A program made the position numbers and the translations under genes. Under the pieces are notes generated by a model. It was not told where the DNA came from, did not search any database, and worked only from the letters and a program-made list of their open reading frames with translations. Below, piece by piece: positions 5,940 through 44,951 of a DNA stretch of 64,000 nt. The number at the start of each line of letters is the position of its first letter. The first letter of the stretch is position 1. Location of the stretch: the NCBI GenBank assembly GCA_010093605.1, contig MU004188.1, positions 2,128,983 through 2,192,982 of the forward strand. The letters run 5' to 3'. This DNA comes from Lophium mytilinum. Lineage: Eukaryota > Ascomycota > Dothideomycetes > Mytilinidiales > Mytilinidiaceae.

Positions 5940-5947
5940 TCTCATGC

Positions 5948-19832: not shown

Positions 19833-22442
19833 GAGCTCGTACGTAGCAAGTGAGCAGCAGCTTGAAAGGGGACGCCATTGGATTCAACTAATCCTCATTC
19901 TCGGCCAAATCGAGTTGTCGATTACTGTGTTAACTCTGGCGGCTAACAACCTCGCGCGGGCCAACAAATGAATGGAGGTAGACGCTTCATTAATACCTTT
20001 GTTCACACCTGAGTCGCCCTTGTACCTCCTATGCAACTCTGGGTGCTTATTACGTATCCCACCTAGTGAACCGTGACTATCATACGATCTTCGACGAGGA
20101 TGCGGTACAGCCTAGACAGCAAGGAAAACCAAGAGGCACCTCAATGACTATTGATCAATGCAAAACTTTTGGTTTCCTGAGTTTGATGGCTATCCTACGA
20201 GCTAAGCAGGGAGGCCAGGAACTCACCCTGGGAAATCGATCGGTGACTCGCTCGGTAAAAAGGTTCTCGCGATTCAAATCGGCGCAGTCATGTAAAGGAT
20301 GACGGAGCGAAGGGAAAAGAGATACGGGATACAATAATGAATGGGTCCTGCTAGTACGGTGGTCACGTGGTCGCGAAAGAAGGGACGGAAGAAGCTTGGA
20401 CCCACGCCTATCCCCACCTCATCCCACCACGCCCCATCATGAAAATACTGTACGCGAAGATGGCGTCGATTATTCAAAAAACCTATGCCGGAAGGATCTC
20501 CTGTACAGAATTTAGTGTGGTCTCGAAGTCATCTACCAGGATCCAGTTCTGAAAGATTCCGGTAAGCAGGCTCAAAGAGCACTCCCCCACGCTGGACATG
20601 GAAAGGTGGCACATTCAGAAAGTAACCTATTTCGTACGTTTGTTTGTACACTCGCTTGCCTCTGCTTGAACTAACTTACGTTCCGAATGGTCCGAAAGTA
20701 CTGGTTTCCATCTCGTTTACATTTTCGAAATTGGCTTCAAGCCCGCATGCAGCGGGGCCGAAATGTACGCAATGCATCATGCTTGCTAAGTATGCTAGCT
20801 ATTGCATTATCGATGCTCCTCCGATGGTTCGTAGGCATGTCGCTCGAAACCAGCAGCTACGCCTTGTATTCTGAAATGCATCCGTATCGTGGTCTTCTTA
20901 CGCACGCCTAGCGAAAATTAGTAAACTGGCCATGTATGTAACGCAATTGAGTAGCGATCATCTCCTTCTGCTCCAGAAAGATCCGCTAACGTACAGTGTC
21001 TTTTATTTCGTGAACTCATTACGCTAGCCTATTAGTGACAGGCCGTAGGTCTGGGCATGCTGGTTCACCCCTGCTTGGGGTATCCCACCAAATTTTCGAG
21101 CTTCCAAAGGCGACGTCGAGTTTCAAGGAGGGCATATTAGGATGCCTCTTGACCATCTCTACCAGCCAGGCTACCCCCTACAATGGTGTGGGGTAAACAA
21201 GACTCAAGCTTCTTCAGTCGAACATGCGACATTAAATGTAGTGGCTAAGGCAATGAGAATGGGACTACCTTTAAATACGTTGGTCGCCAACTAGCTGAGC
21301 TGTCCCCTATAGTGGCATCGAGTGAGTATTATCGAAGCTGAGTAGTGACAAATCCGGGAGCCCAGACTTGTGGTCTAGCACTGTACTTAAACAACTTTTG
21401 CGAGGGTATTAGCTACGATATCACTACTGAGTTCGTAGTGATATTCATTATGTTTCCACTCTCATAAATACTAGCAGCATTATACAGTGTTGACAACAAA
21501 TCAATAGAGCAAATGCCAATCATCACGTTTCTATACATCGATCAACTTCATCTCCACTATCACCGTTGACACGCCGACAGCGAAGCTCCTTCCAGTCACG
21601 AGACTCTCATTATTGCTCCAGGATGTGCTAACGGGAGATGGCAGTCTCTTCGGCCTCGGCTTCCTATTGGCTAGAATCAAGAGTCACGCTCATTTCACGG
21701 GATACGGTCCGTGCGGCGAACCCATCCGGGTATAAATGTTGGATTATGACAATCACCCACAGCAATCAATGCTAGTAGCAAACAGGGTCGCTCCATGTAC
21801 ATAAAATAGCGTCCCAACTCAATATCAGATGCTACGGCCTGCAATTAACAATAAAGAACCCTTCTTCGACGGCCCAAATCTGGACCTCGACAACAATCTC
21901 GACAACATTCTTGATCTCTCTTCGACCTTTCTTTCTCGTCTCCCTAGAATCATCTCTCTTCCCAAGTCAGTCTCTCTACTCCCCAGCTTGTATCATCCAC
22001 TTTCTCTTCCCTCGATTACATCATCCGCTTCCTTTTTCCACTTCCCCGCCCTTACATCTTCCCTCACACCATTCACTACTAACCCAACCCCACCGTTTAC
22101 ATATCCCACTGCCATTCTATTCCAGCTAAACATTCCCTAGTCACTGCGATCCCTAAGGCACTTCATCCTCCCCCATCACGATACCGGTCAACACACATCC
22201 ACAACGTACTCGGCATCCTTCCACAGTATCACATCAACATGAGAGGTTGTCTAGCTCCTCCCACACTACCATGTACCGTATGAGGTCCTCCAGTATGTTA
22301 TTAGAGATCGGAAAAGTGCAACGTTAACGCAAATCATAGCTTGGCGGCCCACCTCATACAGCGTCGAACGGACTGCAATTCCACGTCCGACTGAGCCTGA
22401 TCTTCACTCTTCACGTTGCGCCACCACGGATCAAGAGCCACG
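19833..22442. other. Intergenic, 2.6 kb
   Basis: Frames here are short and lack codon bias. It contains CACGTG at 20364, a perfect 10-bp hairpin at 21418-21444 and a TATAAAT sequence near 21732, which may be the distal promoter of gene A. A pyrimidine-rich tract spans 21900-22130. Confidence 0.5.
21418..21444. other. Perfect 10-bp stem, 7-nt loop
   Basis: ATATCACTAC, seven bases, then its exact complement. It lies in an empty intergenic stretch and could be a protein site or an RNA hairpin. A chance origin cannot be excluded. Confidence 0.4.
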
Positions 22443-24336
22443 ATGTCTCAACTCCTCATGGATCATCAGGATTCCGCTCAAAAGCATACAGCGCCTTCAA
22501 GAAAGCGAGTAAGTTGTGACTATGACTGCCTTTACCTACTATAGTGCTGACCATATCTAGAAGATTAAGGACCTTCAAGGCTGTTCGGACTGCCCTCATT
22601 GCTTTAGAGTAGGATTCAAGATTCTAGACGCCTTACGCCAGCACGTTCTGGGCCACCCAGGAATGGACAATGGCTGCAGAGACAAGTTTGCTACGGCTCG
22701 TGCACCACATCAACGACCACTCCTCATTCCAACTCGCTCTTCAGCCCGGTCGCAATCTAGTGCCTCGTCGGATAATTTAGTCTATAGGGTATTCCGTACT
22801 CCATACAATAACGGCATACTCCCGGCTCAAGCGTCCCCCGCGCAACCTCCGCCGAAGCGAATTCAAGTCGGGTTATATCCTAGCTAATTAGTGGACTCAC
22901 CTTTAGCTCTGGTCCCTACTGAGCACAAGGAGGCGTATAGGTCTGCGGCTAGCGATGGGGCCGTGCCACGCTCTGTTTCAGAGTCCTCCGCCCGCTTTGT
23001 AGATACACCAGCGAAGATGGAGCCGAAGTGTTTGGAACGTGTTTTAGTAGCCTTGCATGAGAAGACTGCTAATCTACCTTCATCTACTTCCGCGTTAGAG
23101 TGTTTAGACTGTCTTTCTGCAGACATCCCTCGGGATTCTACTGATCTACATCTATCTACGTCTGCCTCTGGGAGTGCTACAGGTGATACACTGGGTGGTC
23201 GCGGTAAGTCCCTTCAAAAACGAGCTCCTCCTCGTCAAGTCTCCACGCAAGCTCCGCCGATGCGAAACCACGTCGGGCCCTCTTATGGCTAATCTGTGAA
23301 CCTACCTTCAGCTTCGGTCCCTACTCAACTCGAGGAGGCGTATTGGTCTGCGGATAGTAAGGGCGTCGTGCCACGCACCGTATTAGAATCATCCGCCCGC
23401 CTTGGAGGAGATACACCGGCGAACATGGGAACAGAGTGTCTCGTCCGTGCTTTAGCAGGGGAGCCTGCTGATCTACCTCCAGATATCTCTTTATCGGCAC
23501 GTTTGGTCGGTGTTCCAGCAGCCATCCCTCGGGAGCCTGCCGGTCTACCTCCATCTGCGCCTGCATCTGGGAATGCTAAAGGTAATACATAGAGAGGCCG
23601 TGGTGGGGTCCTACGCGGGGACGCTAGGCAAGCAGCGCCTCCATTTCACAACACGGCGCCGCTGCGGTACGTTGAGCAGTTCCTTTCAGCTGGGCGATTC
23701 AACGAGACTATCCAGCAGCAGTTCCTTCGCGAGCCTGAAACCATTTCGGAACTTCGCCGTCGACTAACTCTGAACATGACGCCCGCAAATCGCATGATCC
23801 TGCTCGTCGTGAATTCAGCAAGAGACTACAGCGCCAGGAGCTCTCAACATCAAGAAGATGTGGCTTCCCAGATTGTGCGATGGATAGTCAGTTCGGGCAC
23901 GGACGCATTCTCTTGTCAGTACTTAGAAGCCCTTGCAACATTCGACGACTTAGTAGTAGCATTGGCAAGACACCTCGAGGGCCGACTGCTGCACTCCTCC
24001 AACCCCCGGTTGCTGAACAATGAGATAAATGTGTTGATTGCAGGCCGTAGCGTCTGATATTAGGTGGAAGGCTAGCTAATATACAGGAACGGACCAAAGT
24101 TTGCTACCGTGATTGCTTGTTGTGGTGATTGTCTTAATCCAACAAAATGGATTTGTGCGCGAGTACGGACCACGACTCTACTGGGATACGATGGACGCGC
24201 TCTACAACGCCGGCTATGGTCTGGCTCGCTCTGGTACTCTTCTCCACCACGCCGATGATGACCCCGTTGATCGTAAGTGACTTCGTCTTTAGATCTAGAA
24301 GATGCTAACAAATAGCCAGAGACAGACAAGGAATAA
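22443..24336 (+). CDS. Helical-domain gene A: C2H2-like finger, duplicated exon, family domain
   Basis: Seven exons by my reading: 22443-22508, 22561-22795, 22907-23203, 23312-23581, 23633-24030, 24164-24272, 24320-24336. Phases agree and give 463 residues. Stop codons at 22885, 23290 and 23590 all fall in introns. Residues ~30-60 contain DCPHCF...LRQHVLGH and GCRDKF, a C2H2-like finger shared in outline with gene B. Exons 3 and 4 are tandem duplicates of Pro/Ser-rich sequence. The C-terminus (~325-450) is the family helical domain: IVRWIVSS, FDDLVVALARHLE, DTMDALYN. The exon 5/6 junction is the weakest: frame continuity (FVREYGP) extends 5' of the AG I used. First member of the array; role unknown. 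Confidence 0.6.
22796..23632 (+). repeat. Tandem duplication of exon plus intron in gene A
   Basis: Two consecutive units of about 400 bp, each an exon (297 and 270 nt, both phase 1-1) with its preceding intron. Matching landmarks in each are VPTEHKEAY / VPTQLEEAY, SESSARFVDTPAKM / LESSARLGGDTPANM and STSASGSATGDT / SAPASGNAKGNT. The introns match too, including GCTAAT branch sites and T-rich acceptors. Confidence 0.7.
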
Positions 24337-25378
24337 CGGGAGTAGCAGAAACGGGTTTGCTGATCAAGTGTCTGGTATCGGTCGTCTTGGAGGTGGTAGG
24401 AATTAGAGGCTGTCAGGGAGTAGCGGTGAAGGCTACGGCAGGCACGTGTTCTCTCTTGTATATAGCCTTACCTCCTCCAGACCTCTTCTCTCCTACATCA
24501 ATTATCATTCATCCAATACATCACGTACACGGCCTATAGCTTCTTATTCCGTGACAAAAACTCTGTTTGGGAGCATTGTCCGTCTCGCTTATGCTTTGCA
24601 AGTCAAGCCGTTATGTTTGTACAGGTGAAGCCCAGCCTTCTCCAATCCACTGTACCTACGCACCGGCGCACTTGTTGGGACAACCATCCGATAAACCTTG
24701 ATAAACGTCTTTTCTTCCTCTGTCTTCCCATCTGAATAAGCGGACACCTTGCAGCGTGCTAGCGAAGTCTGACTTCCCAAGGACAGATGTTCCCGCATTT
24801 TAGCGCCATGTAGAAGCTCAAAACATTAGGCCCGGTACCAGATCGCACTGCGCGTTCCTCCTAAACGTCAATGGTACTAGACTAACAAAAGCATCCATTC
24901 CTGCGTCTTGCTATGGACAGTCGAAGAGCCTATGCTAGCAACCAAACTTTGTAGCAATCAATCTGGCGTCTTATCAAACATTTCAGCGTGTGAGTTTTGG
25001 GTCCTCGAAAATCAAACGTCTTCCACCTCTGAGCAAACTGTCCACTGCTGTTTCTACTTCTTTGGAGATCTTGCTAGATAGTTGACTGCACAGCCGGGGC
25101 ACGTCTGTGCTGATAGTCACCACATGCCAGCTGTAGGACATCAGTACTTCTATATACCAGTAATTACCAGCCTTAATACAGCTCGACGATAATCAGCGTT
25201 ATTAACGGTTGGTGATGTTCATCTCTTTCCACTAGACATGCTGTTAATCCAGCTTTTCGAAGCCAATACGTAGGATATTGAACTCTAACGCGCTCAAATG
25301 CGGCTTCTTATTGGCTTCCTCTTTCATTACGTTCAGCTCACGAGGCATACCCTGAGCGTCACCCCCCAGGGAAAGAGT

Positions 25379-25387
25379 ATAAAAAGC
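25379..25387 (+). promoter_or_regulatory. TATA box, distal to gene B
   Basis: TATAAAAAG on the plus strand, about 840 bp before the gene B start codon. With a spliced, long leader this distance is acceptable. The transcription start itself is not determined. Confidence 0.4.
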
Positions 25388-26142
25388 TACCGCTTAGCTC
25401 TAAAGTTCTGAGCTCGTTCATCAAGATCTTCTCGACAACAATATCCTACGTCTCCTGTCAGCCCGTTCTTTCTCTACGAATTTTCTCTCTTTCATGTCCC
25501 TGCGTATCTTGATTGTCCTTCCTTGCCACACACGCCTTTCACTGTTGGAGTGTTATAATATCGTTTATTTTCCGGTCCCCCTGATCTTAGGTAGGGCGTG
25601 CTTTTTCATCTAACATTCACTATCTGCCTAACTACTGGCCCCGCGTACCTAGCAGCGGGCAAGCTTCGGCTCGCGACGGCTCCTTTCTGGGCTAGCGCCT
25701 TGGCGACATTTTGGGCAACCAACATAAATACACCTCACCTCACCTTGCCCTCGACAAGCTTCTTCCTCCACACTCTCTTTACCCTCACCACCCTCCCCTC
25801 TGCTCTATTCCCTCCTCGTACCACTCCATCTGTCAGTGCCCTATTGCAACCTAGGTAGTATCCTCCCCCCTTTCACTAACCTCGCACTCAGACCAAAACA
25901 CCCACCCTCGACCCCGACAAAACCCGACAGGCACAACACACCCCTACCTAGGATCTTGGCTTGTACTTTACCTCACCTCTGGACTTCGTAAGTTTACCCT
26001 CGCCGATGCAGGTCCCAGACGCGTCGATATCAAGTCAGTCCTCTCACTGACGTAGATCGAAGCGACCCATCATACGAGTCGCGACAACGAAGCGGCACCT
26101 GCACACTCTTCTCTTCTCGGTTCACTTGATTCTCGCCATCTT

Positions 26143-26218
26143 GTAAGTCTGTCCTTGCCGCTGCCGCAGTCTCACGAGCGTCGCTCAGCTTGTTCCTATT
26201 GCTAACTCAAACTTGTAG
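26143..26218 (+). other. 5' UTR intron of gene B
   Basis: Donor GTAAGT, branch GCTAACT and acceptor TTGTAG lie immediately before the start codon at 26225, an ideal fungal intron of 76 nt in the leader. Confidence 0.65.
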
Positions 26219-26224
26219 ACCACG

Positions 26225-27745
26225 ATGAGTAATAACGATCGCCTACGTCGTCCCTGGAAAGGGAAGCGGCCGCCTCAACCAACAGTCAGTGAATCATTCA
26301 CTCAGCTCAGCATAGGCACTAACGCTCTCCAGGGGCAAGCAGATACTCCGGGATACTACCGGCATTACCTTTGTGGGCAGAGTTTCTCCAATCTCCAGGC
26401 AGTGGCAGACCATCATTATGGACCGCGCAATCGGAAGAGGGGCTGCCGTGACCGTTACAACGATCCTCACAATGACGCTCCGTAAGCACCTCCATCATAT
26501 GTCCAATTTGATCCCTAACTAAGCCATCATCCTCTTAGATGGCGAGACCCAACCTGCCAACGAACGGACCACTATTCACCACCTTCAAGAAATCGAGTCA
26601 ACCACGCGCGAGCCGAGCCCACCGGACGGGAACTTTTCGCGCGCCAGAACCGGAGCGAGGACGCTACATTGGCTCCGGGCACCTTCCCACCACAATGGGG
26701 GGCTAAGGCACTTGAAGGTCAGGAACGTGCGCAAGCGCAATCCGATCCCATAGTCATAGCTTGCGTCTCTGGCGTTATCCTTGGGAAGACCGGCGAAGAT
26801 GAAACAGAGCCATCGTCGTCTCATCGTTCGAGGAAGGATACTCCGCTGGGGCTCTCTGAGCTCCATGATGATCGTTCTTCGGAGGATGCAGAGAGGATGA
26901 AAGAGTCAGTGCGTTGTGGTTATCGTTCGATGGAGGATGGTCAGCCGGATCATCGTTCATCGGAGGATAACTCCGCCCGAACCCAATCGTGCTTGGGTAC
27001 TCCCAACAGGATTGCTGTGGATTCTGGAACGGCAAATATTGCAACCTCCTACGGTCATGGAGCCCGAGAAAGACCTGTTCAGGACGAGGCGAGCGCACCC
27101 GGCGGTCCCGGAGGCCGTCGGGAACCACGTCCACAGCTCCCAAGGACGGACCAGCTCTTCTTGTCGGCATCAATTCAGAGATCTGAGCTTTCGCAAATTC
27201 AGCTTACCGCCGGAGAGACCATGGAGGAACTTCAAGAGCGCTTGGCTAGATCACAACGACCCCAGGATAGGGCAGTGATTATTCTGATTCAAGTCGCCAT
27301 CTCCTTTGCTGCAAGAGGCCTCGATCAAGAGTCTAATGTCACGGATTCCATTGTCAAATGGATGGCTCCAGATATGGACGCCCTTCAGCTAGCCTACTTC
27401 AGGCTGAATCCTGGATTTGAGAACCTAGTGTTGGGATTGGCAAAACACATTGAGATCAAAATCTTCTTCTCGGATTATCCCCCGGACGTTTTTCACGACA
27501 TGCAAAAATTTGTCCGTCGTTATGGAGATCTCGGCCCTCACTTGGATGCGATGGACGACATCGTCAACACCGAAGACAACTATGTTAGCAATCATCCTCC
27601 TCGTCCCGAAGCTTGGCAATTCCCTCCTGCCCGTCCAAATGACGGTAGGAAACGAGCTCCTTCCCAACATAACAACATTCCCGGAAAGAGGGTGAAGCAG
27701 GAACCGGAGAATGAGGACCATGGCCCTGTGATCGAGATCGACTGA
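26225..27745 (+). CDS. Helical-domain gene B: finger-like N-terminus plus family domain
   Basis: Exon 1 26225-26481 and exon 2 26539-27745 (phase-2 intron, GTAAGC...CTTAG) give 487 residues. Residues ~45-80 align with the gene A finger (YLCGQSF...ADHH...GCRDRY), but the first Cys of the C2H2 is His and spacing to the last ligand is long, so zinc binding is doubtful. Residues ~115-180 are disordered, with RSSED/RSMED repeats. The helical family domain is at ~310-450: SIVKWMAPDMDALQLAYF, FENLVLGLAKHIE, FVRRYGDL, DAMDDIVN. The C-terminus has a basic patch (RKRAPSQHNNIPGKRVKQE) like a nuclear signal. Unknown function, possibly nuclear. Confidence 0.72.
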
Positions 27746-28951
27746 TTCTCCCAACCAACTCAGATTCCTTGGGCATGGTCTTACATGCAGTTTCTTTGTC
27801 TGTGTTCCAAGGCGTGGGTCTTCTCTTGTACTCTACACTCTCATGCTGTTTAAGCGTTGATCACAGCACTCTTCTGTAGCACTCTTTCCCCCACCAGATA
27901 TACGAGCCTACTACGCTCTGGTGGTGGTTTTAACGAGGTTACCGTTCCCTAGCTGAAAACTTGTCCCTGATGCATTGTGATCGTGATATGTATGCAGAAT
28001 GTGAATATTGCGTGCTGGAATAGAATACACGCTCAAAGATTCCTAGGGTGGAGGATTCGCGGCACTAGGCATAGCGGCATGTTTCCTCGCCGCGCGTGGG
28101 CTAGTTTGAGACACGGTAAAGCTTTCACAGGCAGTACGCTTACTTATTCTCCATGGGAATCAACACAAGGCTCATCAAGCCCCTGGATACTCCTAGTCTT
28201 GCACCTTTGAATCTACCCAAGCCCCACGCTTAGCAAACAATCGATACATTCCATGTGTTTCCCCATCACTCTATCAGCTGTGAGGCGCTGCTCATGAGTC
28301 TACACGGCCCTCAGGTCCTTCGCTGTGTCTGCTAGGTGAAGGGCCCGAGAATTTGGCTTTGGTGGCATTTCCGGGAACAATGAAGATGCCATCAACCGGC
28401 CAGGAGGAGTCGCGGTCTATTCGAGGTGCTAAAGAAGTTTGGGAAAAGTTCAGGAAAATCTAGCGAGTTTTGGAAGCTTGATTTGCGGCGCACGGCGTCT
28501 TTGGTGACGTTGGCTGGGGTACCAAAGCCGTGTATGTGTGCGCTAGATGCAGTTTGCTCTTCTGAGTCGACGCAAAATCGGTCGTAGTAGGAGGATAATT
28601 ACGACTGCGGATCTATTGGGGGTTAGGTTTGATTCCGTCGTTTTCTTCTCTCGTCGACGTCACTTCGGCCCGGCCTGCACATTCAATTATTGGTGGAGTG
28701 TGCCAGATGTTTTTCGCGACACGTGAGTGCTGAATCGAGGTCGGAAAGAACGTGACCGATATTGCAAAGGATTAGTTGAAGCGCTAGATTAGAGGTGGGG
28801 CTACTTAGTCAATGCTTCGAGGCGAGGTGAGTGAAATAGTGATTGAAATAGTGAAGGACGTAATATCAGTCCGAGGAAGTCGACTTCTCTACAACTCACC
28901 ACCACCACCGAACACCCAACAGCCTCATATTCTACAGGATCGTCCTTCCAG
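27746..28951. other. Intergenic, 1.2 kb
   Basis: An 8-bp inverted repeat (CCACCAGA at 27891 and TCTGGTGG at 27917) lies downstream of gene B. CACGTGAG at 28720 is 230 bp before gene C. Nothing else noted. Confidence 0.4.
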
Positions 28952-29640
28952 ATGACAACCACGTGAGTTTCTAAATCTATTGAGAGAACAGCACATGCTA
29001 ATGCTAAGGCGAAAGAAGCACCTCCACGGTGGACGGGCAGACCGAACTGCCTGGAGCTGCGCAGCGAGATTCGGCGACCCGATCTATCTATAGGGTTCCT
29101 GTCGGAGAGCCTGCCACCGACACGCTTTTCAGCAACACCTTCCAACCTGAGGATGGGGTCGAATTGCCCCGGGTCACCCTGGCCACCGATGGCGAGTCGC
29201 TTAAACGTCTCTACAACCGCCTTATGACAGACCAGTCCCCTGAAAACTGCATGTCCTACTTGATGCTATCCGTGGCATCCGACATTGCTTCTGCGGGAGA
29301 TTCGATGAGATATGTGGAGGTCCAGGCATACATCGCAAAGTGGATGCTTCCCAAGCTGAGCACAATCGAACTCGTCTACTTTGCTGCGATCAACAACTTC
29401 AACGACCTTCTGGTGGCAGTGCTTGCAAAGCTGGAAGACGAAGACGAAGAAGCCGTCGCGTTGGGCGAGATGCTTGTCTTCGTTATGAAGTTCGGTGACT
29501 ACTGGCAGAAGCACAACTTCATGAACGCGTACCGGGAATATAACGGCATAGAGGCGATCGGCGGGAACGTGCGGGCACAGTCTCGCAACGAGAATACCGG
29601 GAATGAGGGCAGTGAGAGCCAGGAGGGCAATGAGATCTAG
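28952..29640 (+). CDS. Helical-domain gene C
   Basis: A tiny first exon, 28952-28962 (ATGACAACCAC), is spliced by a 53-nt intron (GTGAGT...GCTAATGCTAAG...AAG) to 29016-29640; the phase-2 junction gives MTTTSTSTVDGQTEL and 211 residues. The family domain spans ~60-185: YIAKWMLPKLSTIELVYF, FNDLLVAVLAKLEDE, GEMLVFVMKFGDYWQKHNF. The tail is Asn/Gly/Glu-rich. No finger is present, so this is the short architecture of the family. Same strand and spacing as its neighbours. Confidence 0.78.
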
Positions 29641-30146
29641 GGAGCTGCGCGCTCAATCTACAGAAGACTGGTTTCGCGGAGCTTTGTGGAGCCGGCAATG
29701 ATGTTCGAAAGCATTGTTGGGATTTCGGGCTCTGGATTCTCTAGTGCATATCACCAGATTACGGAGTCTTTTTTTCCCACTGTGGCGGTTTCCCTTCCGG
29801 TAAGCCTAGCATATAGAAAGTCGTCAAGGCGGCTTCACCCTTGGCTCGTAACAACAATGCTTTAGATGGCACTCAGGGACATCATACTCCAGATAGGTTG
29901 CGTGTTGTGTTATGCTTACAGATCTGCGTGTACCTTTCTCCACTACTTAGTCTAGTGGATGTCCTACTCGACTTTCCGCTGCTGTCAAACTTCCTCTTTC
30001 GTATAATCAGTATACTTTTAGGGGCGTCGTCTTATTTAAGATCTCTTCTCAACTCCCGCACACCCACTATTCAATTGTGTTGTGAACACTGCGAACTCTC
30101 AACCCACACTTTGACACAACGAGTCTAACGAGCGTCAGCATCCAGA
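29641..30146. other. Intergenic
   Basis: No supportable gene. A short AT-richer frame at 29841-30128 lacks coding bias. A T-rich stretch lies near 29770. Confidence 0.4.
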
Positions 30147-30495
30147 ATGTATCGTGCAAACCACCAGACGTATGCCGATCCTGGGTATCGAACTATTCAA
30201 TGTTCGGAGCCGCTGCAGCAGGTAAGACCACGGACAGTTGCCTCAAGGGAGATTTTAACCTAAGATCCAGCAGACTTGGGAGCATCAACTTCGTGAGTGT
30301 GGAATTATATCTCTTCGCGGCGTCGGCAAGCACCATTCCACAGCCTTCAAAGGGATTGCCATGTTCGAAATCACCACGCTGCGAGTTGCCGCTACCCGAG
30401 AACAGTCTAGGAGCTTCGATGGAGAGTCCATCTTCCCTAATGAAGAAGATGTGATTCCCCCTTCTCTAACGATCTATTCATCCCAAAGCAGATGA
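30147..30495 (+). CDS. Small unknown protein between genes C and D (tentative)
   Basis: Exon 1 30147-30221 (MYRANHQTYADPGYRTIQCS) and exon 2 30271-30495, separated by a 49-nt phase-0 intron (GTAAGA...CCTAAGA...CCAG), give 99 residues, including GVGKHHSTAFKGIAMFE and FPNEEDVIPPSLTIY. A further coding-like stretch in another frame (about 30525-30689, containing RRKIWHAMADIRGHEALQEF) may be a later exon, but I could not join it cleanly. No family recognised, and no match to the helical domain of the neighbours. It could be a decaying gene inside the array. Confidence 0.35.
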
Positions 30496-31567
30496 TGCGC
30501 TGTTGGTCACGGGTCCATACCGACAGTAGATATTTAAGGCGTGACGTTCGTCGTAAGATCTGGCACGCAATGGCAGACATACGAGGTCATGAAGCTCTCC
30601 AAGAATTTCATGCCGTTCCGTTGGCGGATATGGAAGATATCCATGACATGTCTCATCATCCGGAGGCTCTACTCTTTCAGGGCGTCTGAGCTAGTCTTCA
30701 CTATGTTGACATTCACGCTGTATTTGAAGTTCTAGAGGTTCGTTGGAGTTGCCCAAGCAGTAGCAAACATGTGTGCGCAAGTTGAATTTATGTATGAAGA
30801 CACCGCGACATTACGGTGTCTCATCATTGATTTGTGGACAGTTCCAGGTCATAAGTTCAGGTATCCTGATATCTCACTAGCTAGGCCTCACCTCTGCTCC
30901 CTTGGTGCCACAGTTAGCACTATCTCTACAACGATGTGGTGCTCTAACAAGCTCGTGAGAATCTCGAGAATTGCGCAGCACGGCTAAATCTGGATATCCA
31001 TCAGCCACCGCCTGAGGTGGCCCGACAAACTTGCTAAGTGTTACAATCAGCACAGCGGAGAATTTTACATGTGCATCGAATAAATTCAAGGAGGAGCAAA
31101 GAGGTGTACACCGAAGTGTATCGCGTTGTCCTACTAGGACTCTCGATTCGCCCAGTCAACCTGGGAACGTCAAGATTTGAGACTGAAATTCCACTACGCG
31201 CTCCATCATCAAACTCCCCGATCTCCGTCCTTCTTCCACCTTCTCCTACCACACTTCTAAACTGCCGCCTTCTTACCACTCATCCTGAAACTCACATCCT
31301 CCGCAAACCACCGCCCACTATTTTGAATCGCAGCAAGCGTTCGCCTGTCTTTTCACTGTTCAGTCTCGTCCTCGATACTCTATTCCGAGCCTCGAACATT
31401 CCATTCTTCCACAGCAATCTTTTCACCGCCAAGCTGGGTCGCAACGGAAGCTCTGCTAACCCGGCCCAGCCGTCGTTTTCTCCACTCCAGTCAAGGTACG
31501 CTTGTACCTTCTTTATTCCTGAGAACCACTTCTAACGTCAGCCCACAGCATCGCATCCTCCTCTACC
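30496..31567. other. Gap before gene D with possible exon remnant and leader
   Basis: Holds the unjoined coding-like stretch at 30525-30689 noted above. From 31200 the strand is C-rich as in a 5' leader, and an intron-like segment (GTACGC...CCCACAG, about 31496-31548) precedes the gene D start. Confidence 0.4.
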
Positions 31568-32227
31568 ATGCCCATTCAGCGCCCCCGCTGGATGAGCAGC
31601 ACACCGCCCCTTCCACAAGGCACCCAGTATCCCGGCGAGGGTGAGCCGGTAGTCTTCGCCGCTCGTACCTACTCCCACCACCCCCATGGCGAGACCTTCG
31701 ACGACATCTCCTCCGACCTCAGCGAGCTCTGCCTCCGCGTCATGAACACCCCCCACAAGCTCTGGAGCTGCATGTACTACTTGCTCATCTCCGCCGCCTG
31801 TGTCCACGGCGCAAAAGGCGTGGACGAATGCGACGAGATCATCGACTACCTCAACCTCTGGCTACGGCCGATGTGCACCGGCCTCGAATGGGAATACGTT
31901 CATGAAATCCGGTATAATTTCGCAAAGTTGGTGGTGGCGATGGTGCGGAAGCTGGAGGACGAGCGAGATAGGCGCAGCGCGATGTTTGCGTTTGGCGATA
32001 TGGTGACGTTTGTCATGGGTTTCGGTGGGGTGCATCATCGGAGGAACGCTATATGGTTGCATGCGATGTATATGGATTTGCCGATTGTGGCGCCGTTTGA
32101 CGACTGTGAGTGGGAGGAGATGCACGAGGACCAGGATCAGAGCGAGACTGAGCATGACGTGCTCACGGACTATGAGGGTTTGGAGGACTATGTGGATGAA
32201 GAGGAACTGGAAGGATACATGCGGTAA
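31568..32227 (+). CDS. Helical-domain gene D
   Basis: Uninterrupted 219-residue frame from the ATG at 31568 (MPIQRPRWMSS). The family domain is at ~45-175: YLNLWLRPMCTGLEWEYV, FAKLVVAMVRKLEDE, FGDMVTFVMGFGGVHHRRN. Unlike genes C, E and F, the EML motif is altered (GDMVTFVMGFG). The C-terminal 40 residues are strongly acidic (ECEWEEMHEDQD-like composition). Codon use in the first half is C-ending and highly biased, suggesting good expression. Short architecture without finger. Confidence 0.8.
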   Translation: MPIQRPRWMSSTPPLPQGTQYPGEGEPVVFAARTYSHHPHGETFDDISSDLSELCLRVMNTPHKLWSCMYYLLISAACVHGAKGVDECDEIIDYLNLWLRPMCTGLEWEYVHEIRYNFAKLVVAMVRKLEDERDRRSAMFAFGDMVTFVMGFGGVHHRRNAIWLHAMYMDLPIVAPFDDCEWEEMHEDQDQSETEHDVLTDYEGLEDYVDEEELEGYMR

Positions 32228-32696
32228 AGAGCTGACGTGGACTGCTTGGCCCTGATGATCGGAAGGGAAGGTATCCTGAATCAGGGTGTTAATCACAGCA
32301 TAGCTTGTATCAGAGAGACAAGTGGCTTGGACTACAATGAATCAAACTCAACAGAGTCTCGCTCGTTAATTTGGCAGCGATGAGCATGCGACTATCAGTA
32401 TTCAAGACTGTTCTTTGGAAATGTCCTGAGTTCTCTGGATGACGCCAAACAGCCCTTTCGACTTGCGCCTTCCCTAGAATTCCATCGAGTGAAAGCACAG
32501 CCCACACCAGCGTTTAAAACCTTACTTCCGACCTCCATGACTTCTCACCTCCAAACACCCCAACGCCAACACCATCCATATCGTGCGCAGACTCTCTTGA
32601 GGGAAGTGCAGAGTTGACGACGCTCTGAATAAGGTCAAACGCTTCTGATAATGTTGAAACCGTAGCTAACTTGTTCGACTTTGCAGCTGTTCGGCC
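32228..32696. other. Intergenic between genes D and E
   Basis: No gene. The sequence just before 32697 ends in CTTTGCAG, so a 5' UTR intron of gene E is likely but its donor is uncertain. Confidence 0.4.
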
Positions 32697-33164
32697 ATGG
32701 AGTCCAACACGACAGAAATACCACTGGACATTGCCACTAGGGAAGCCGTCAGAGCCCTTCAAGGCCGTCTTGAGGTAGACACAACCTTCAAAGGTCGCAT
32801 GCCCTTCCACGTACTCGACACTTGTCTCAGCAACGGTCGCGCGGAACAATACACCATAGGAGATGTCACGAGGTACATCACAGACTGGATTGGCCCGAAA
32901 CTTTCCAAAGCCGGATGGGATCGGCTGATACCGGGTCTAAGAAGCACGCTACTCGTGCTCCTCGTCGCGCGAGCTATCGACAACGAGCTCGAGCAGAACG
33001 GAACCTTGGAAGATATGGTTTACGCGGAAATGTTGGCATTCGTCTTGAGGTTCGGCAACGTGGATAGGAAGAAGGTGGTCCTCTACCTTTACCTCAAGCA
33101 CCACGACATGATCGAGTCGGTGACGGAGAACAAGATAACATTCGCAGCCGACTTGGTGGGCTAA
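32697..33164 (+). CDS. Helical-domain gene E
   Basis: 155-residue single-exon frame starting MESNTTEIPLDIATREAV. The family domain fills almost the whole protein: LQGRLEVDTTFKGRMPFHV, YITDWIGPKLSKAGWDRL, LLVLLVARAIDNELEQN, YAEMLAFVLRFGNVDRKKV. FKGRM and FGNxxRK are shared with gene F, its closest neighbour in sequence and position, suggesting a recent tandem duplication. Diverged ~100-bp repeat units lie 270 bp downstream. Confidence 0.8.
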   Translation: MESNTTEIPLDIATREAVRALQGRLEVDTTFKGRMPFHVLDTCLSNGRAEQYTIGDVTRYITDWIGPKLSKAGWDRLIPGLRSTLLVLLVARAIDNELEQNGTLEDMVYAEMLAFVLRFGNVDRKKVVLYLYLKHHDMIESVTENKITFAADLVG

Positions 33165-34025
33165 GAAGGCGACTAGTTGTCCATATTTCACTAGGCTATG
33201 TGCGTATGAGGTTCGTCGAGGGGACAAACTTGATCCATCCGTCTTCCCTTCGCTTCTGAATAGCACTTCAATCAAACTGCTTTGCTGCAACGACTTACTC
33301 TGCTCTTGGCACGTGACACTTCAAAACTTCGTCTTTTTGGCATGAGCGCTGAGTCAGGTTCACAGTCCTAGGCCTCAAGTCTGGGCACACAGACTCATTA
33401 CAGCTTGGCTCCATCTTACCCACTAAATACCACCGCTAGGGGTAGCCTAGCTGCTGAGTAGGCAATCAGTCAAGAGGCAGTCTAATATACACTGCTGGAA
33501 GCTTGACATTGACCTTGAGTTTGAGAGTCCCTGTGGGGGCATCTCAAGCAGTGGCGTACTAGTGTGCCTAGATTTGTGGCCTTTCACTGTACCTTACGCG
33601 CGTTTCATGTCCTCTCAGGAGCACCTAAAGGACACAGTAGACGATCAACTTCACTCTTGCATTCTGTCTTGTTTACATAGGCCTGATATGCCTCTCCTTG
33701 GTACACTTCCGTGAATATCCAAGATGGAGATGAAATTGAGATCAATCTGTGAAGGCAGACGTGCCGAACAATGTCACCGATCCAATGTTCACCTGACTTA
33801 CTCGGGTAATGGTGCACGGGCCTAGGCCGCCTACTTGGGACGCGTCGCGGACTTCTTCAGCTCAACTCTCCACTCCTCAGCTTCAAACCTCACTCACCAC
33901 AAGCAAGACCACAAAGGTCGCGCCACAGACTACAAAAAGGCACTCAAGCTCGCTCTGAGGTAAGCTCTCACCCACACCCCATATAGGAGAACATTTTCCA
34001 ATGCGGCCTCTAGTCCTAACAAAAC
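33165..34025. other. Intergenic with repeat units
   Basis: Contains CACGTGAC at 33310 and one or two diverged units of the 107-bp repeat (33428-33550). A GTAAGC donor near 33960 may start a 5' UTR intron of gene F. Confidence 0.5.
33428..33550. repeat. Outlying diverged unit(s) of the 107-bp repeat
   Basis: Shares with the array at 34.7-35.2 kb the order: CCACYGYAAGG-like start, TCA-G-CAAACGG-like middle, then TTGACATTG and GAGTTTTG-like end, before a second CTGTRRGG start. Similarity is visible by eye but far from identical. Confidence 0.4.
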
Positions 34026-34502
34026 ATGCCGTCTAAAATCGCCAAAGCGCCGAAACCAGCCCTCCCCGACACCATTTCGGCCCTCAACGATCGCCTCTGG
34101 GATGACTTAACATTCCAAGGCCGCATGATGCACGTCACCATCGCCTCCGCGTATGACTTCAAGGCAACTCTGCCGGAGCACGAGGACGAAGTCAACGCCC
34201 GTATGAGGTCTTGGATCATTGCACGATACTTCCCCAAGCTAAATGCACTCGAGATAGCGGTGCTCCAGTCAACCAGTCAGAATCTTGGTGCCGCGCTGTG
34301 GGCTACGCTCAAAGACGCCTTCAAGCAGTCGCCGTTGGAAGAAGATGTCATCTTTACCGAAATGTTGGCATTCGTGATGAAGTTCGGAAACGACACGCAG
34401 AGGAAGTCGATGCTATACATGTACACCGTCAACCAAGGCCTGGAGGGTTGCTTCACGCGGAAGATGAGGGAGAAATACATGAAGGTTACGAATGTGGTCT
34501 GA
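34026..34502 (+). CDS. Helical-domain gene F
   Basis: 158-residue single-exon frame from MPSKIAKAPKPALPD. Family motifs: LNDRLWDDLTFQGRMMHV, YFPKLNALEIAVLQ, FTEMLAFVMKFGNDTQRKSM. Compared with gene E, the W-x2-PKL motif appears as RYFPKL. It ends in a basic tail (TRKMREKYMKVTNVV). Last member of the left block; immediately 3' lies the tandem repeat array. Confidence 0.8.
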   Translation: MPSKIAKAPKPALPDTISALNDRLWDDLTFQGRMMHVTIASAYDFKATLPEHEDEVNARMRSWIIARYFPKLNALEIAVLQSTSQNLGAALWATLKDAFKQSPLEEDVIFTEMLAFVMKFGNDTQRKSMLYMYTVNQGLEGCFTRKMREKYMKVTNVV

Positions 34503-39188: not shown

Positions 39189-39557
39189 GGAGCGCCATTG
39201 CAGTTTTAAGCATTGAGGTGTAACGGGGGACTGAGAATGTCGAAGCTGTTCGAATAAGTTCTCTCTGCCCTGATGGCTTTCCAAGGTAGTCGCATATCGA
39301 CACAGTTGATCCATCGCCTTGCATTTAGCATATCCATACTATTTTGACTTTCTTAAAATAATTTCTCGATACTTTCATTGTCAACATCCTAAGTACTTGA
39401 CTTCCAGATCCGTGCGAGGCGAGCTAATCAGATGCTCGCTTCCAATTTGTTTTGTTTTCTCCTAGCAGGCTCACGTAGTCACGCGAATGCGAAGCTCTTC
39501 ACGCTTTGCAGGTTCCGCGCTACCTCATCACCACCTCCCAGCCTATGCAACCTTACT

Positions 39558-40580
39558 ATGGCAGGGCCTAGTAGCAGCTTCAGTCCCACTGGCGAGACTT
39601 CTTTGAGATCGCCTGCGCCAATAATCACCGAACCTAATGCCGACTCCCCTTGCACTCTCTGGGCCCTGGGTCTCAGCGAATACCTCAGAGTCCTCCGCGA
39701 CAACGGGTTCTGGGACGTAGATACACTTCTGGAAATCACCGACGATGACATGACTGAGCTCGGATTCAATCTGGGTCATCAGCGCATCATGCAGCGGGAG
39801 ACTGCCGCCGCGGCATTGCAGGAGAAAAAGTCTCGCATCAAGCCCGAGAGCATGGCGCTCGGATACCTATCTCGCATACTCAACGACCTTTTTCTCTACA
39901 GATACAAAGCAACTCTCGAAAACAATGAATTTCACAACTGGCCCACCGTTCTCGAGATCACGGAGGGCGATCTCAAGCAGCTGGGGTTCAAGATTGGGCA
40001 CCGGCGCCTCTTGCAGCGGGAGATTGCGATTGCGCGCGGTCGGTCTGGCCAAGGTGCGATGGAGTCTAAACAACTTAGGAGAGAGTCTTGTGGCAACGAC
40101 GATTCGGTGAGTAAGTCAGCGGACAAGGTGTCTTCTATTTCACTGGATATCGACTTCTAACAAGGCGATTCCCAAGACCTCAACTCCTGTTCGTTCGCGT
40201 ATCGTCTCTTCGCCCAACAAGGACTCAGAATTCCTAAACTGCTGTTAAAAAGGCTCCACAAGTTCAACGATACCAAGACAGATACTTGTAACAAATTCCT
40301 TTGCCAGTATGGACTAAGTCCTACTGAAGAAACGCAACAGCTTTTCTGGATGTTTGAGGCATCGAAGGTCCAGCGGGTTCGAAACTGCCGGCGAACTCTG
40401 GAAGCCAAAAATACCGATAGAGACGGTATCCTAACAGATACGAACAGATTAGCTTTACAAGATATGCTTTACACAGTCTTCAGGATCGATCGGTCCGGGG
40501 ACAACATTGACGGCGGTAATGTAGATGGATCTCGCGCCTGCAAAATCAGCTCCGAGATGGGTCTTCACCCGCAGAAATAG
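39558..40580 (+). CDS. SAM-array gene 1: two SAM domains plus helical tail
   Basis: Exon 1 39558-40110 and exon 2 40165-40580 (donor A|GTAAGT, branch TTCTAAC, acceptor CAAG, phase 1) encode 322 residues. The upstream in-frame ATG at 39432 is less likely, because the paralogues start just before the SAM. The two SAM domains are GLSEYLRVLRDNGF...ITDDDMTELGFNLGHQRI (~30-85) and YRYKATLENNEF...ITEGDLKQLGFKIGHRRL (~105-160). Exon 2 has FLCQYGLSP and QLFWMFEASKVQRVRN, matching the second exon of other members. SAM domains mediate protein oligomerisation or RNA binding. Partners unknown. Confidence 0.8.
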
Positions 40581-41037
40581 ATGCATGCAGCAAATAGGGC
40601 AGACTTATGAACCACCACGGAACGCAGGCCTTTGGAAATACTGTATGAAGCTGTATTTATCCTCTCTAGTAGCTCGTGTGCCATCAATTCATCACTGTCT
40701 CGGGTGACTCTGAGGTCAACCAGTGCATATATTGTCTGACATCATGCTATTCTCACTCTTTGAATCTTGAAAATATTTGGAAGGACTTCACTTGGGCATT
40801 CTTGGTGACCATTATGAGGGGTTTTGGGCGTAACTGTGACAGACCTTGATTTTCCATCCTGAGCAAGAGCTCGCTCAACGAGCCCTAGTTGGGACCATTT
40901 CCTTTACGGACAACAGTTATCAATCAACCAACAAGCTTGGCTAGCACGCCGCTGACCGTTCCTCCTCACTTCCGTATATATATAGTCTTCCACCTCAACT
41001 TCTCCTCCACCAACTTTACAACCACCAACTCTTCATC
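40581..41037. other. Intergenic with TATA box
   Basis: No gene. TATATATA at 40975-40984 precedes SAM-array gene 2 by about 55 bp. Confidence 0.5.
40975..40984 (+). promoter_or_regulatory. TATA box of SAM-array gene 2
   Basis: GTATATATAT-type sequence followed by a pyrimidine-rich leader and the start codon at 41038. Spacing suits a short 5' UTR. Confidence 0.5.
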
Positions 41038-42003
41038 ATGATGGAGCTCAAGCCTATCCTCGAGTGCTTTGGGCTCGAAGCATATCACGACGTGCTCATC
41101 AGCAACGGATTCGAGCAATGGGAGACGGTTCTTGAGATCACAGAAGAAGACTTGAACGCGCTGGAGTTCAAGCGTGGACACCGCCGTCTGCTGCAGCTCG
41201 AGATCGCTCACTACCGCGAACATCCGATTGAAGCAGCGAAGGAAGCCGGAGAAGGATCTGGGAAAAAGCGCAAAGCGAATTCTCAAGGCAAGTACGCTAC
41301 AAATCGAACGACGTATCTGTGCTAATTTCAGGTACTACCAGGCGGACCTGCTGCAAAGGTTGTCAAGAGGCCAGCTGGTGGATCGGAGCAGGTAGATGCG
41401 CTAGGTATGCCATCATTAACTCTTCGTCCTTGCTCTACTCACTCTAAATATAGGCCAGCCTATTGCCAAAGCCATACAGAAGGCTTTCCAGGGACCCACC
41501 AATGCTAGCGGCGATGATGATTCAGGTAAGCAGCTTCAGTAGCATTTGTTCGTTGGCTTATGTACTCACCAAAACAACGCTTAGATCATCAAGCCCATAT
41601 GGCGCTGAGGACTCTTTTCATTCAAGCCCGCAAGACAGGAAAGAAAGAGTTCGAAAAGTTCATCAGCTATGCCGATCTCATTCCCAACTACAAGGTTCGC
41701 CAGTTCTTCTGGTTCTGCAAGGGCGCTGAAATGCGAAAGAACTCCAGCGACCACGAACTCGACCGTATCTGGAAGGCTGTAAGGGCCTTGATGGAGGAGG
41801 TGGGTTCGATCAGGGAGCCAACCATTGGCGACCTAGAAGATCAATGGGATAGGTACCGATACGCCACGGGTATGCGAGAAGCAGTCAATAAAATCCTAGG
41901 CGGCAATGAGGAGAAAGAGGAGGAACTGTCCAAAGATTTGAATCTCGATATTACTGACTATATCGGTGACGACTCGCCCACAGACGTCGGATACGGATGG
42001 TGA
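41038..42003 (+). CDS. SAM-array gene 2
   Basis: Exons 41038-41287, 41342-41404, 41454-41525 and 41585-42003; all introns are phase 1 and the product is 267 residues. The first intron is best read as GC-AG (AAG|GCAAGT...ACCAG), because normal GT choices break the linker. The SAM domain is at ~5-58: LECFGLEAYHDVLISNGF, ITEEDLNALEFKRGHRRLL. The linker is basic. The C-terminal module has FEKFISYADLIPNYKVRQFF and a final helix GMREAVNKILGG. The first codon could be either of two adjacent ATGs (41038 or 41041). A TATA box lies 55 bp upstream. Confidence 0.8.
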
Positions 42004-42571
42004 GAAGAGGTGGTCAGTCTGAAGGTAGAGTGCACGTGGCCTCAGCTTCGAGCTAGTTCCGGTTTCCTCAACTTGCGTTTAAGCGTTGGAGAGAGGTTTT
42101 GATGGGCCTAGGAGAGTGGAGTCGAAGACTCGAAAGGCCTGGAGTTGACTCAGCGAGCTATCATTATGCAGCTATGCTCACATCTTAGCATCTACCAAAG
42201 ACCATCAGTTGTTCCCCGATCTTTCCATCTATGTGCGAGATCTTTCTGCCGGGTTTAGATCCGTTTCCTCAACATTTTTTCTTATTCCTGTAAATACCGG
42301 GGCAAAGGTGTAAAATCAGATTGCCGCCGCTGAATGTGGCTCGATACCTCTTAAAAAGGTAAGCAGCATCCATTCTGATTGATCAGAAGTCCCAGCGGCC
42401 TAGGGTAGCGCCATCCAGCACTGGTAAAGTCACTGGACGATAGCAAAACATCATTGGCACGGAGAAACAGCTTCTCTGCCATATTGCCTGCCTGGCACGA
42501 GACGCGTCTCAAATTGCTCCAGTGCCCACTTCTTGTCTTTCGAACAGCCGTCCAACGACATTCAAGTCACC

Positions 42572-42690
42572 ATGGCAGACCTCGCATCCATCCTCGAGTA
42601 GCTCGGCCTGGAGAAATGCCATGAAACGCTGATCAGCAACGGCTTCGAGACCTAGCGCTGATTTCTCTTGATTACAGAAACCGTTTTGAA
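42572..42690 (+). pseudogene. Dead SAM-array copy (3)
   Basis: Starts like the live copies (MADLASILE) and continues LGLEKCHETLISNGFET, the first half of a SAM domain. It has a TAG after residue 9 and two more stops just after the SNGFET motif, then loses similarity after LLITE. No second exon can be recognised downstream, though 42690-42935 is open without family features. A clear pseudogene of the tandem array. Confidence 0.75.
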
Positions 42691-43695
42691 GATAGTTGAG
42701 TGTCGAAGTCAGTCACTGCTGCATGGTGCAGGATGAGATTGCCGTCTATCGCAGAGTCGAAGGAAGTGCGCTTCTAGATGTGCAGAACGCCTACTATCCG
42801 AGTCGATGTAGATACCTGAGCGTCTTGATATTTGATGCTCACAGCCGTGTAGGGCGAAGACTAAGCCTTGGAACTTTCGCTCTTCAAGCTTACGCCGGCC
42901 AAAGCCGTCCCATCCCCCACGTTTCGATGTAAGGCATCACGAGACTCTTCGGCCCTGAGCAGCGAAACTTCGAGCATTCCCTCCATCACCAGTACCTTCG
43001 ATCAAAGGAGTCGGCACACGAGATCTTTTGGATGACGCAGGCGGTGAAGCTAGCAAGGATTCGTGACTCTAGAGGAATTAAAGGTAGGAGTGTGTAGAGT
43101 ATGCTCAGAGGGTTTACGCATTGGGCCTTATATGCACCATTTTCGTCCAATAAATGATATAGCTAGCTGCACCGGGTATGCAGAAGTCCACTAGTACTCA
43201 CGAAACGCATGTGAAAGAGCCAACCAAAACTTACGTGATCACCACGCCCTTCATTAGTAACAATGCGGCTTGGTCACTATGTTTATGCCTTCTTGTCACG
43301 CTCCGTGGTGTGTTTACCACTTTGCAGAACCAGAACAAAGGACGGTCTAACTCGGATACTCTTTATTGCATATAAAGTCTGCTGAGCATGGTCCAAGGCA
43401 CTCTAGCATGGCTTGAAACTCCAAATGGGAATGTCAAATCCTCAGGGGCGTATATCAGAGGGCTACTCGAGTGATCGATTTCAGACCACCAACAAAGGTC
43501 TAGAGTACTTGAAGAGACGGTGCCCCATGTCGGTGCCAACACTTCATTTCTTCTTCGCCTCCGAGACCCAGCCACGCGAGTCGTGGGAGTCATTACTTTG
43601 TCCCACTCCCTATAGTAGCGCCTCACTTCACCAACGAGTCCCTCTCTCTTCACAACATCACCCTCGAGCGGTCCGACATCTTCCACGACTACACC
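42691..43695. other. Degenerate 3' part of copy 3 and intergenic DNA
   Basis: No functional frame. The segment 42695-42935 is open but unlike the second exon of the array. The remainder is featureless apart from the leader of gene 4, which is C-rich before 43696. Confidence 0.4.
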
Positions 43696-44253
43696 ATGGC
43701 GAACCTCGCATCCAAGCTCCAGGGCTTGGGACTGGAGAGATACCACGTTGCTTTCGTCGAGAACGGTTTCGAAAATTGGAGCACCCTGAGCAAGATCACG
43801 GATGACGATCTCAAAGAGCTCGGCGTCAAGATGGGCCATCGCCGTATCCTGCAGCATGAGATCGCCGCGGAACGCAACAAGGCTGCCGAGGAGCTCTCAA
43901 GCCTACAAAACGGCGGCGCGCTAGGTAAGTGCATCATAATTGAGCCTTGAGCTGTTTTCACTGACAACTTCCAAGACGAAACTCTCGGCTTTAGAGAGTA
44001 TACGCGCCGTTTTCTCGCTGAACACGTTCGAGTCGTTCCAGAGGATCGACTTGACATCCTTGACTCTGAAGAAGGCAACTGGCAAGACTTCCTTGGCAAA
44101 TACGGTCTCTGTCCTTCCCTACAAGTCTGCAAGTTGTTCTGGGAGGGACGGGTGAATACCTATGTTGCGGAGAGGAATTCCACTGGTGGGCTGATCAATC
44201 AATCCGCGAGAACGTTCTACCTATTCCTCAAGGTAACTCCTCAAATGTCTTGA
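43696..44253 (+). CDS. SAM-array gene 4
   Basis: Exon 1 43696-43924 (MANLASKLQGLGLERYHVAF...) and exon 2 43976-44253 (51-nt phase-1 intron, GTAAGT...ACTGAC...CCAAG) give 168 residues. The SAM is at ~3-55: LGLERYHVAFVENGFENW, ITDDDLKELGVKMGHRRI. Exon 2 encodes FREYTRRFLAEHVRVV, FLGKYGLCPSLQVCKLFWEG and RTFYLFLK. The frame ends soon after a GTAACT site (44233), so a further exon may have been lost or missed. Compared with the longer paralogues it lacks the last GxxxGQLD helix. Confidence 0.75.
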
Positions 44254-44951
44254 AGGCTTTCATCAATCCGCCGTCGGTGGACTACTGAGCTCGAACGGAC
44301 ATGAGACTATGTTAGCTGGAGACTGGCTTCGATGTGCAGGCCTGATTCACACGAGTACCAGCAACAAAACTCGGGCCGTTCTGGAGATGAAATAAGGCAG
44401 TATCTGGAGTCTCTGCAATCGTCAACACACGAGATGACAGCTGGGGAGAGGCGGGATAGAGCACTATCAAGTTACGATCGAAACACAATATCAAACTTTT
44501 GATCGTGTAAATGGATGTGTAACGGAGAAACCCAATAACCGTGTGTCTCAGACTATTGGAGATACTTTGACTGAGGCTGTTCTGTTCCCCTCGATACATG
44601 ATGTTTGGGTGTGTCTGGAGAATGTGGACGAAACGAAATCTTTCGAATTCTTTCCAAAGAACGCCCATCCCCATTCTTATTGGTTTACATTGATGTCGCT
44701 TTCCACAACAAGGACCTGGCCGACTGCTTTACGTTTAACTACCCTTTGGGAGCACGTAGTTGTAAACTAGACTGGTGAGTGAACACAATAGTCCTTTCAG
44801 CTGGCATTCACCACCTTTCTTCGTCCACTTAGCCGGTTGTACCCTTTTCCCAACGCACTGTCCCGTTCCTTGAAGGTTTCTGCATCCTCATCGTAACTAA
44901 CCGTCTATTGCCCTCTCTTTCATCGCACCCAAACAACGAGCTCCACTCATC
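44254..44951. other. Intergenic between SAM genes 4 and 5
   Basis: No supported gene on either strand. Possibly the 3' remnant of gene 4. Confidence 0.4.

What the first reader, a model, noticed from the sequence alone, without database searches (positions are those of the whole stretch)
22443..34502. An uncharacterised helical domain expanded in tandem (genes A-F), with three architectures
Six same-strand genes share a ~130-residue pattern: [IV]xxW[IL]xPKL, then ExxxLxxxxxxL[LV]xAVxxLE, then EMLAFVMKFGN or a relaxed form of it, and a final helix. A and B add a C2H2-like N-terminus; C-F are minimal; G and H (49-51 kb) carry another N-terminus. I know no family with this combination. This is the best candidate for an undescribed system. 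Motifs were aligned by eye.
Basis: partly seen in the sequence, partly recalled or inferred. Interest (0 to 1): 0.85.

Follow-up and report, generated by a model that had tools for sequence, protein, structure and literature searches.

The report
Undescribed seven-helix fungal gene family
A fungal chromosome end carries eight related genes or gene remnants for a small, seven-helix protein domain that matched no catalogued family searched; the family is real, but its function is still a guess.

Summary
The family is real. Profiles built without one member recovered the held-out member at rank 1 for 9 of 9 members (E 1.5e-10 to 3.3e-23) in 2,701 ORFs; 20 shuffled-sequence profiles reached 0.24 at best. 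Genes A-H (22.4-51.4 kb) belong, as do three copies on contig C2, one apparently broken: 11, a lower bound. The literal motifs are overstated: motif 2 occurs in 0 of 9 members. A is broken: a 113-bp solo terminal repeat with a 5-bp target duplication lies inside its domain; H has a frame break. The best Pfam match is E 0.068, below cut-off. AlphaFold gives C a seven-helix domain (pLDDT 86.4) and E the same plan (73.5). Foldseek finds no significant neighbour. CARD-type structures head all three lists by probability, among rows shown, but every sequence test for CARD fails. The cluster lies 59-88 kb from a telomere. An unrelated SAM-gene array sits between F and G, another tandem family at the window's left end, and a HET-domain gene 29 kb beyond H. 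Most likely: lineage-restricted intracellular interaction modules. Function, location in the cell and lineage restriction are inferred, not shown.

The parts
22443..24031 (+). Gene A: C2H2-like N-terminus (by eye), a 104-nt segment repeated at 399-nt spacing, three in-frame stops (introns or decay), seven-helix domain up to about the start of helix 6; broken by the repeat at 24032
21737..21850 (-). Solo short terminal repeat 0.6 kb upstream of A, 5-bp target duplication ATAAA
24032..24144 (+). Solo short terminal repeat inside A, 5-bp target duplication AAATG
24146..24277 (+). Flank beyond the repeat; read on its own, one of its frames aligns to family profile positions 112-135, weakly (1.6 bits, E 0.035 in a set of three; the other two frames score 0.7 and -0.9)
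26225..27745 (+). Gene B: two exons (26225-26481, 26539-27745; intron placed by eye), 487 aa, degenerate zinc-finger-like N-terminus (by eye), domain about 27203-27604, basic stretch near the C-terminus
28952..29640 (+). Gene C: short first exon 28952-28962, then 29016-29640 (intron by eye), 211 aa; domain 29161-29580 modelled at pLDDT 86.4
31568..32227 (+). Gene D: single exon, 219 aa, acidic tail
32697..33164 (+). Gene E: single exon, 155 aa, domain only; modelled at pLDDT 73.5
34026..34502 (+). Gene F: single exon, 158 aa, domain only
49124..49978 (+). Gene G: 284 aa, other N-terminal part plus the domain
50602..51383 (+). Gene H: other N-terminal part plus the domain, with a frame break about 51050-51105 (short intron or decay)
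39393..48525 (+). Neighbouring, unrelated tandem array of SAM-domain genes, several with a shared C-terminal helical-looking region

Best explanation
A probably lineage-restricted multigene family of small fungal proteins built on one undescribed seven-helix domain. The proteins are probably intracellular and non-enzymatic: they act as protein-protein interaction (adaptor or assembly) modules, and added N-terminal parts (zinc-finger-like in A and B, another in G and H) direct some members to other partners. The genes arose by local duplication in a subtelomere, diverged strongly, and some copies are decaying (A cut by a small retroelement-like repeat, H with a frame break). Shown: the homology, the place near a telomere, the broken copy. 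Predicted: the fold. Inferred: the interaction role, the location inside the cell, the lineage restriction, and any link to self/non-self recognition or development.
For: Homology. Fold: seven helices at pLDDT 86.4 for C, and the same plan at 73.5 for E. No enzyme family reached significance. The columns that stay alike are mostly hydrophobic or structural, without an evident catalytic set (by eye). N-termini are not hydrophobic: the highest 11-residue mean in the first 35 residues is 0.65 among 8 family sequences (A and H as N-terminal pieces), against 2.37 and 2.40 in two open frames of families often secreted. Place: C8:2151425-2180365 of 2239608, and the contig ends in TTAGGG repeats. Two further tandem families in and beside the window; HET-domain gene 29 kb beyond H.
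Against: No expression, interaction or phenotype data. The lack of catalytic residues was judged by eye on 7-8 divergent sequences, and one arginine is invariant in the seven-sequence alignment. The family was sought in one genome only, so its taxonomic range is unknown. Decayed copies (A, H, C2 about 26.8 kb) would also fit genes with little function. 0 of 6 inner branches of the gene tree are strongly supported.
Confidence: 0.5

Rival explanations
1. A fungal CARD-like death-fold adaptor: six of the seven helices form a death fold, and the proteins assemble by homotypic contacts in a signalling or cell-death complex, perhaps with the neighbouring SAM-domain proteins.
For: By Foldseek probability, CARD-type entries come first in three of three searches, among the rows shown. 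C against PDB (50 of 136 rows shown): 6jcc 0.35 (a designed protein named D_1CY5_M1; that 1CY5 is the Apaf-1 CARD is recalled), 6bzh RIG-I CARDs 0.15, 4p4h RIG-I/MAVS CARDs 0.14, others shown <=0.11. C against BFVD (50 of 174 shown): Q66677 'CARD domain-containing' 0.51. E against PDB (all 46 shown): 5wvc_E 'CARD-CARD disk' 0.21, 8xqk_A Apaf 0.16, next 0.08. The fourth helix is short, as helix 3 of CARDs is (CARD anatomy recalled).
Against: The Foldseek E-values of these hits are 0.77 to 4.1, and no hit of any kind is better than 0.64. TM-scores to entries named CARD are 0.44 at best; the next two BFVD hits by probability (0.41, 0.23) are not named CARD. Ordered by E-value the PDB lists are headed by other folds. 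Pfam's CARD model finds nothing in this cluster at E<=10; its one hit in the genome is on C12 and below cut-off. Profile comparison with 13 typed CARDs gives probability 0.3% or less and does not beat rotated or reversed controls: 25 of 50 controls reach the local score, 13 of 50 the global one. Seven helices are predicted, not six.
Confidence: 0.1
2. A family of nuclear regulators: zinc-finger-like N-termini (A, B) bind DNA and the helical domain recruits partners; minimal members compete as dominant-negative forms.
For: A has a C-x2-C...H-x3-H-like segment, and B has a basic stretch near its C-terminus (read by eye).
Against: Pfam finds no zinc finger in either N-terminal piece; B lacks ligands by eye; A is broken; C-F have no such part.
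Confidence: 0.15
3. Orphan or decaying gene family without a selected role, kept going by duplication and subtelomeric turnover.
For: A is cut by a repeat and H has a frame break; a third, apparently broken copy lies on C2. In Neurospora a section heading on lineage-specific genes says knockout phenotypes suggested that few play essential roles (PMC10684091, outline).
Against: B-G keep open frames with coding statistics and one profile at 25-31% identity to C, which suggests purifying selection; that was not measured.
Confidence: 0.15
4. A domain domesticated from, or carried by, mobile elements.
For: Copies of one short terminal repeat lie 0.6 kb upstream of A, inside A, between G and H (partial) and about 0.5 kb behind the C2:504 kb copy, although only 40 copies were scored in 43.18 Mb (43 candidates, a lower bound).
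Against: The two copies at A each have their own target duplication, so each looks like a separate later insertion and not a carrier; the copy at C2:504 kb shows no target duplication. No transposase, gag or phage match for the domain. The nearness was counted after it was seen, and repeats may be denser in such regions.
Confidence: 0.07

Closest known systems
Lineage-specific subtelomeric gene clusters of Neurospora crassa (PMC10684091; abstract and sections 8 and 13 read)
   Same: Genes mostly without known domains near telomeres, paralogues side by side, HET-domain genes in the same clusters
   Different: That study reports no enriched known domain among them; here one predicted fold defines the family. 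Species, lineage restriction, expression and phenotypes are unknown here
CARD / death-fold domains (Apaf-1, RIG-I)
   Same: All-helical, similar size; highest-probability structure hits among rows shown
   Different: Extra helix, no sequence or profile match, structure scores not significant
SAM domain family (PF00536)
   Same: Neighbouring tandem array of helical-domain genes
   Different: A-H do not match SAM; the C-terminal regions of the SAM genes do not match A-H (hhalign probability 0.1%)

Membership tests
CARD / death fold | Sequence profile match to CARD | tested here: not met
   0 of 8 members match CARD in a Pfam scan at E<=10 (HMMER filters on); PF00619 in the own genome gives 1 hit, on C12, below cut-off; hhalign not above controls
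CARD / death fold | Six-helix antiparallel bundle with short helix 3 | tested here: inconclusive
   Seven helices predicted; CARD-type hits lead by probability, but E>=0.77 and TM<=0.44 for those named CARD; helix order could not be compared
CARD / death fold | Homotypic assembly | not testable with these tools
   Needs purified protein
SAM domain | PF00536 match | tested here: not met
   No SAM hit in A-H; met by the neighbouring array
C2H2 zinc finger (N-terminus of A and B) | Pfam zinc-finger match | tested here: not met
   0 families at E<=1 for both N-terminal pieces; the pattern in A is only by eye
HET-domain incompatibility genes | PF06985 in A-H | tested here: not met
   one HET gene lies at L056:6257-8224
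Secreted effector | N-terminal signal peptide | tested here: not met
   No hydrophobic N-terminus in 8 of 8 family sequences (A and H as N-terminal pieces) by a hydropathy scan with two controls; no dedicated predictor was run and start codons are my own choice
Lineage-specific subtelomeric gene family | Paralogues clustered near a telomere | tested here: met
   8 copies within 29 kb, 59-88 kb from TTAGGG repeats
Lineage-specific subtelomeric gene family | Absent outside the lineage | not testable with these tools
   No other fungal genomes held

The most novel reading that the evidence does not exclude
The domain is a fungal, CARD-like death-fold adaptor that has diversified in tandem beside a tandem array of SAM-domain proteins, forming a subtelomeric repertoire of helical assembly modules used in self/non-self recognition or regulated cell death.
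Probability: 0.07. Interest if true: 0.85.

Novelty: new member of a known kind. Interest (0 to 1): 0.42.

Why it matters
It gives a defined, modelled domain to a cluster of genes that would otherwise stay 'hypothetical', and a simple way to test whether such subtelomeric orphan genes work as interaction modules. If the weak CARD likeness held up, it would put death-fold-type adaptors in fungi; in the passages read, death folds are described as adaptor domains of animal NLRs, and fungal signalling through amyloid motifs, with some enzymatic effector domains (PMC5485727, passages).

Tried and rejected
CARD homology by sequence: rejected. Relation between A-H and the C-terminal regions of the SAM genes: rejected. 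Phage families: none. tRNA and Rfam features in the window: none (ARAGORN; Rfam gathering thresholds). Gene tree: 0 of 6 inner branches strongly supported and long branches meet, so the idea that adjacent genes are sister pairs rests on pairwise scores only. Weak own-genome hits on C15 and C8:1899303 were looked at with the family profile and gave nothing at E<=1 (L038, L053, L047); weak hits on C3 and C13 were not followed. Papers on fungal death folds: searches; nothing seen in their listings, or in passages of PMC5485727, PMC8195603, PMC9342958, PMC11138114 and PMC12133306, describes one; that is no proof of absence. Two searches on subtelomeric tandem or SAM genes brought the Neurospora paper; search 88 and passages of PMC3562529 served the repeat question. 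A note says 8 of 17 SAM hits lie in the window; the recount is 7 of 17.

Full report
What was given. Six same-strand genes A-F at 22.4-34.5 kb were said to share an undescribed helical domain, with relatives G and H at 49-51 kb. The window lies on contig C8 (2128983-2192982 of 2239608) of a 43.18-Mb genome in 24 contigs; the contig ends in TTAGGG repeats, so the gene cluster is 59-88 kb from a telomere. Zn(2)-Cys(6), HET and fungal-specific transcription factor genes near by point to a filamentous ascomycete (inference); the species was not identified.

The family is real. phmmer without filters, on 10 sequences, links A-F through many pairs (C-D 5.5e-13, E-F 1.1e-12, A-B 1.6e-16, B-C 1.1e-11) and links G and H to them through A and C; E and F do not match G or H pairwise. 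In a leave-one-out test with nine members (A-G and two copies on contig C2), the held-out member came first among non-training ORFs in 9 of 9 cases (E 1.5e-10 to 3.3e-23; 2,701 ORFs); the next hits listed were pieces of H and of an apparently broken copy on C2. Twenty profiles of residue-shuffled members reached 0.24 at best.

Copies. Own-genome searches with C, F, B, G, the C2:30.8 kb copy, the C2:504 kb copy and E, and the family profile on the fetched stretches, give 8 copies in this cluster, one at C2:30795-31661, one at C2:504351-504737 and an apparently broken one near C2:26801-27280. The tool says that counts of large families are lower bounds, and the whole genome could not be searched with the profile. 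Identity to C is 17-31%.

Gene anatomy. C-F are small; E and F are little more than the domain. B is a two-exon gene of 487 aa and C has a short first exon (introns by eye). Coding statistics favour the right frame in B, C, D, E, F, G and the C-terminal part of H; in A they are weak in the domain and do not favour the frame in its N-terminal and middle parts. No N-terminus is hydrophobic in a simple scan.

Gene A is broken. A 113-bp repeat at 24032-24144, with TGTT...AACA ends and AAATG on both sides, sits inside the last part of the domain; an inverted copy at 21737-21850 has ATAAA on both sides. The flank beyond the repeat, read alone, aligns to the family profile at positions 112-135, the expected place, but only weakly: 1.6 bits, against 0.7 and -0.9 for the other two frames. 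Elsewhere the same repeat occurs singly (L063) or as direct pairs 529-548 bp apart with a shared 5-bp target duplication (L061, L062); a copy behind the C2:504 kb gene shows none. This looks like a very small non-autonomous LTR-type element (TRIM-like); primer-binding site and internal parts were not analysed. 40 copies were scored of 43 candidates genome-wide.

Structure. AlphaFold2 on an alignment of eight window sequences gives C a seven-helix domain, pLDDT 86.4, pTM 0.79. E, on seven sequences, gives the same seven-helix order plus a short C-terminal helix, pLDDT 73.5. Foldseek finds 0 matches at E<=0.001 in PDB and in the viral library. Ordered by probability, CARD-type entries lead each list among the rows shown, but all values are weak; ordered by E-value the two PDB lists begin with helical-bundle proteins such as bacterioferritins (C) and membrane proteins (E) at TM about 0.2. 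Sequence tests of the CARD idea are negative. I therefore keep CARD likeness as a lead, not as a classification.

Surroundings. Between F and G lies a second tandem array: SAM-domain genes, several with a shared C-terminal region; 7 of the 17 PF00536 matches in the genome (E<=1) lie here. The C-terminal regions show no relation to A-H. A third tandem family lies at the left end of the window and beyond, in L051: 10 ORFs match its profile at E<=1, of which three built the profile, four score 8e-7 to 2e-4 and three are weak (0.003-0.06). A HET-domain gene lies at C8:2209156-2211123, 29 kb from H. Only selected frames of the flanks were scanned with Pfam, and one HET gene in about 140 kb is not strong evidence of a link.

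Interpretation. The best-supported reading is a subtelomeric, non-secreted interaction-module family, probably restricted to a lineage. The mechanism is inference: an all-helical domain without evident catalytic residues (judged by eye; one arginine is invariant), varied N-terminal parts, strong divergence with a kept fold. Neurospora offers a precedent for the genomic setting: lineage-specific genes aggregate near telomeres, paralogues are often clustered together, and HET-domain genes share the clusters (PMC10684091, abstract and sections 8, 13). What the proteins do is not shown here.

Noticed in passing
window 39393-48525: Tandem array of SAM-domain genes (7 PF00536 hits, one open frame with two SAM domains); several share a C-terminal region unrelated to A-H.
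   Followed up: partly
window 669-6688 (minus strand) and L051:4476-9999: Third tandem family of short orphan genes with a motif like HPS..W...FRA..LQ; 10 ORFs at E<=1, three of them training members and three weak.
   Followed up: partly
window 21737-21850, 24032-24144, 50392-50441 (partial); L061, L062, L063, L048:2368-2480: Very small LTR-like element: 113-bp terminal repeats, elements of 642 and 661 bp, 5-bp target duplications at five of six places checked; copies near several family members.
   Followed up: partly
window about 24410-24556: Another dispersed repeat of about 147 bp with TGTCA...TGACA ends; about 30 of the 45 rows are matches to it.
   Followed up: no
L056:6257-8224 (minus strand): HET-domain gene (Pfam E 2.5e-24) between the cluster and the telomere.
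   Followed up: no
window 17064-17666: Open frame that by eye resembles the C-terminal part of HSPA12-like Hsp70 relatives (recalled); no Pfam hit at 0.001.
   Followed up: no
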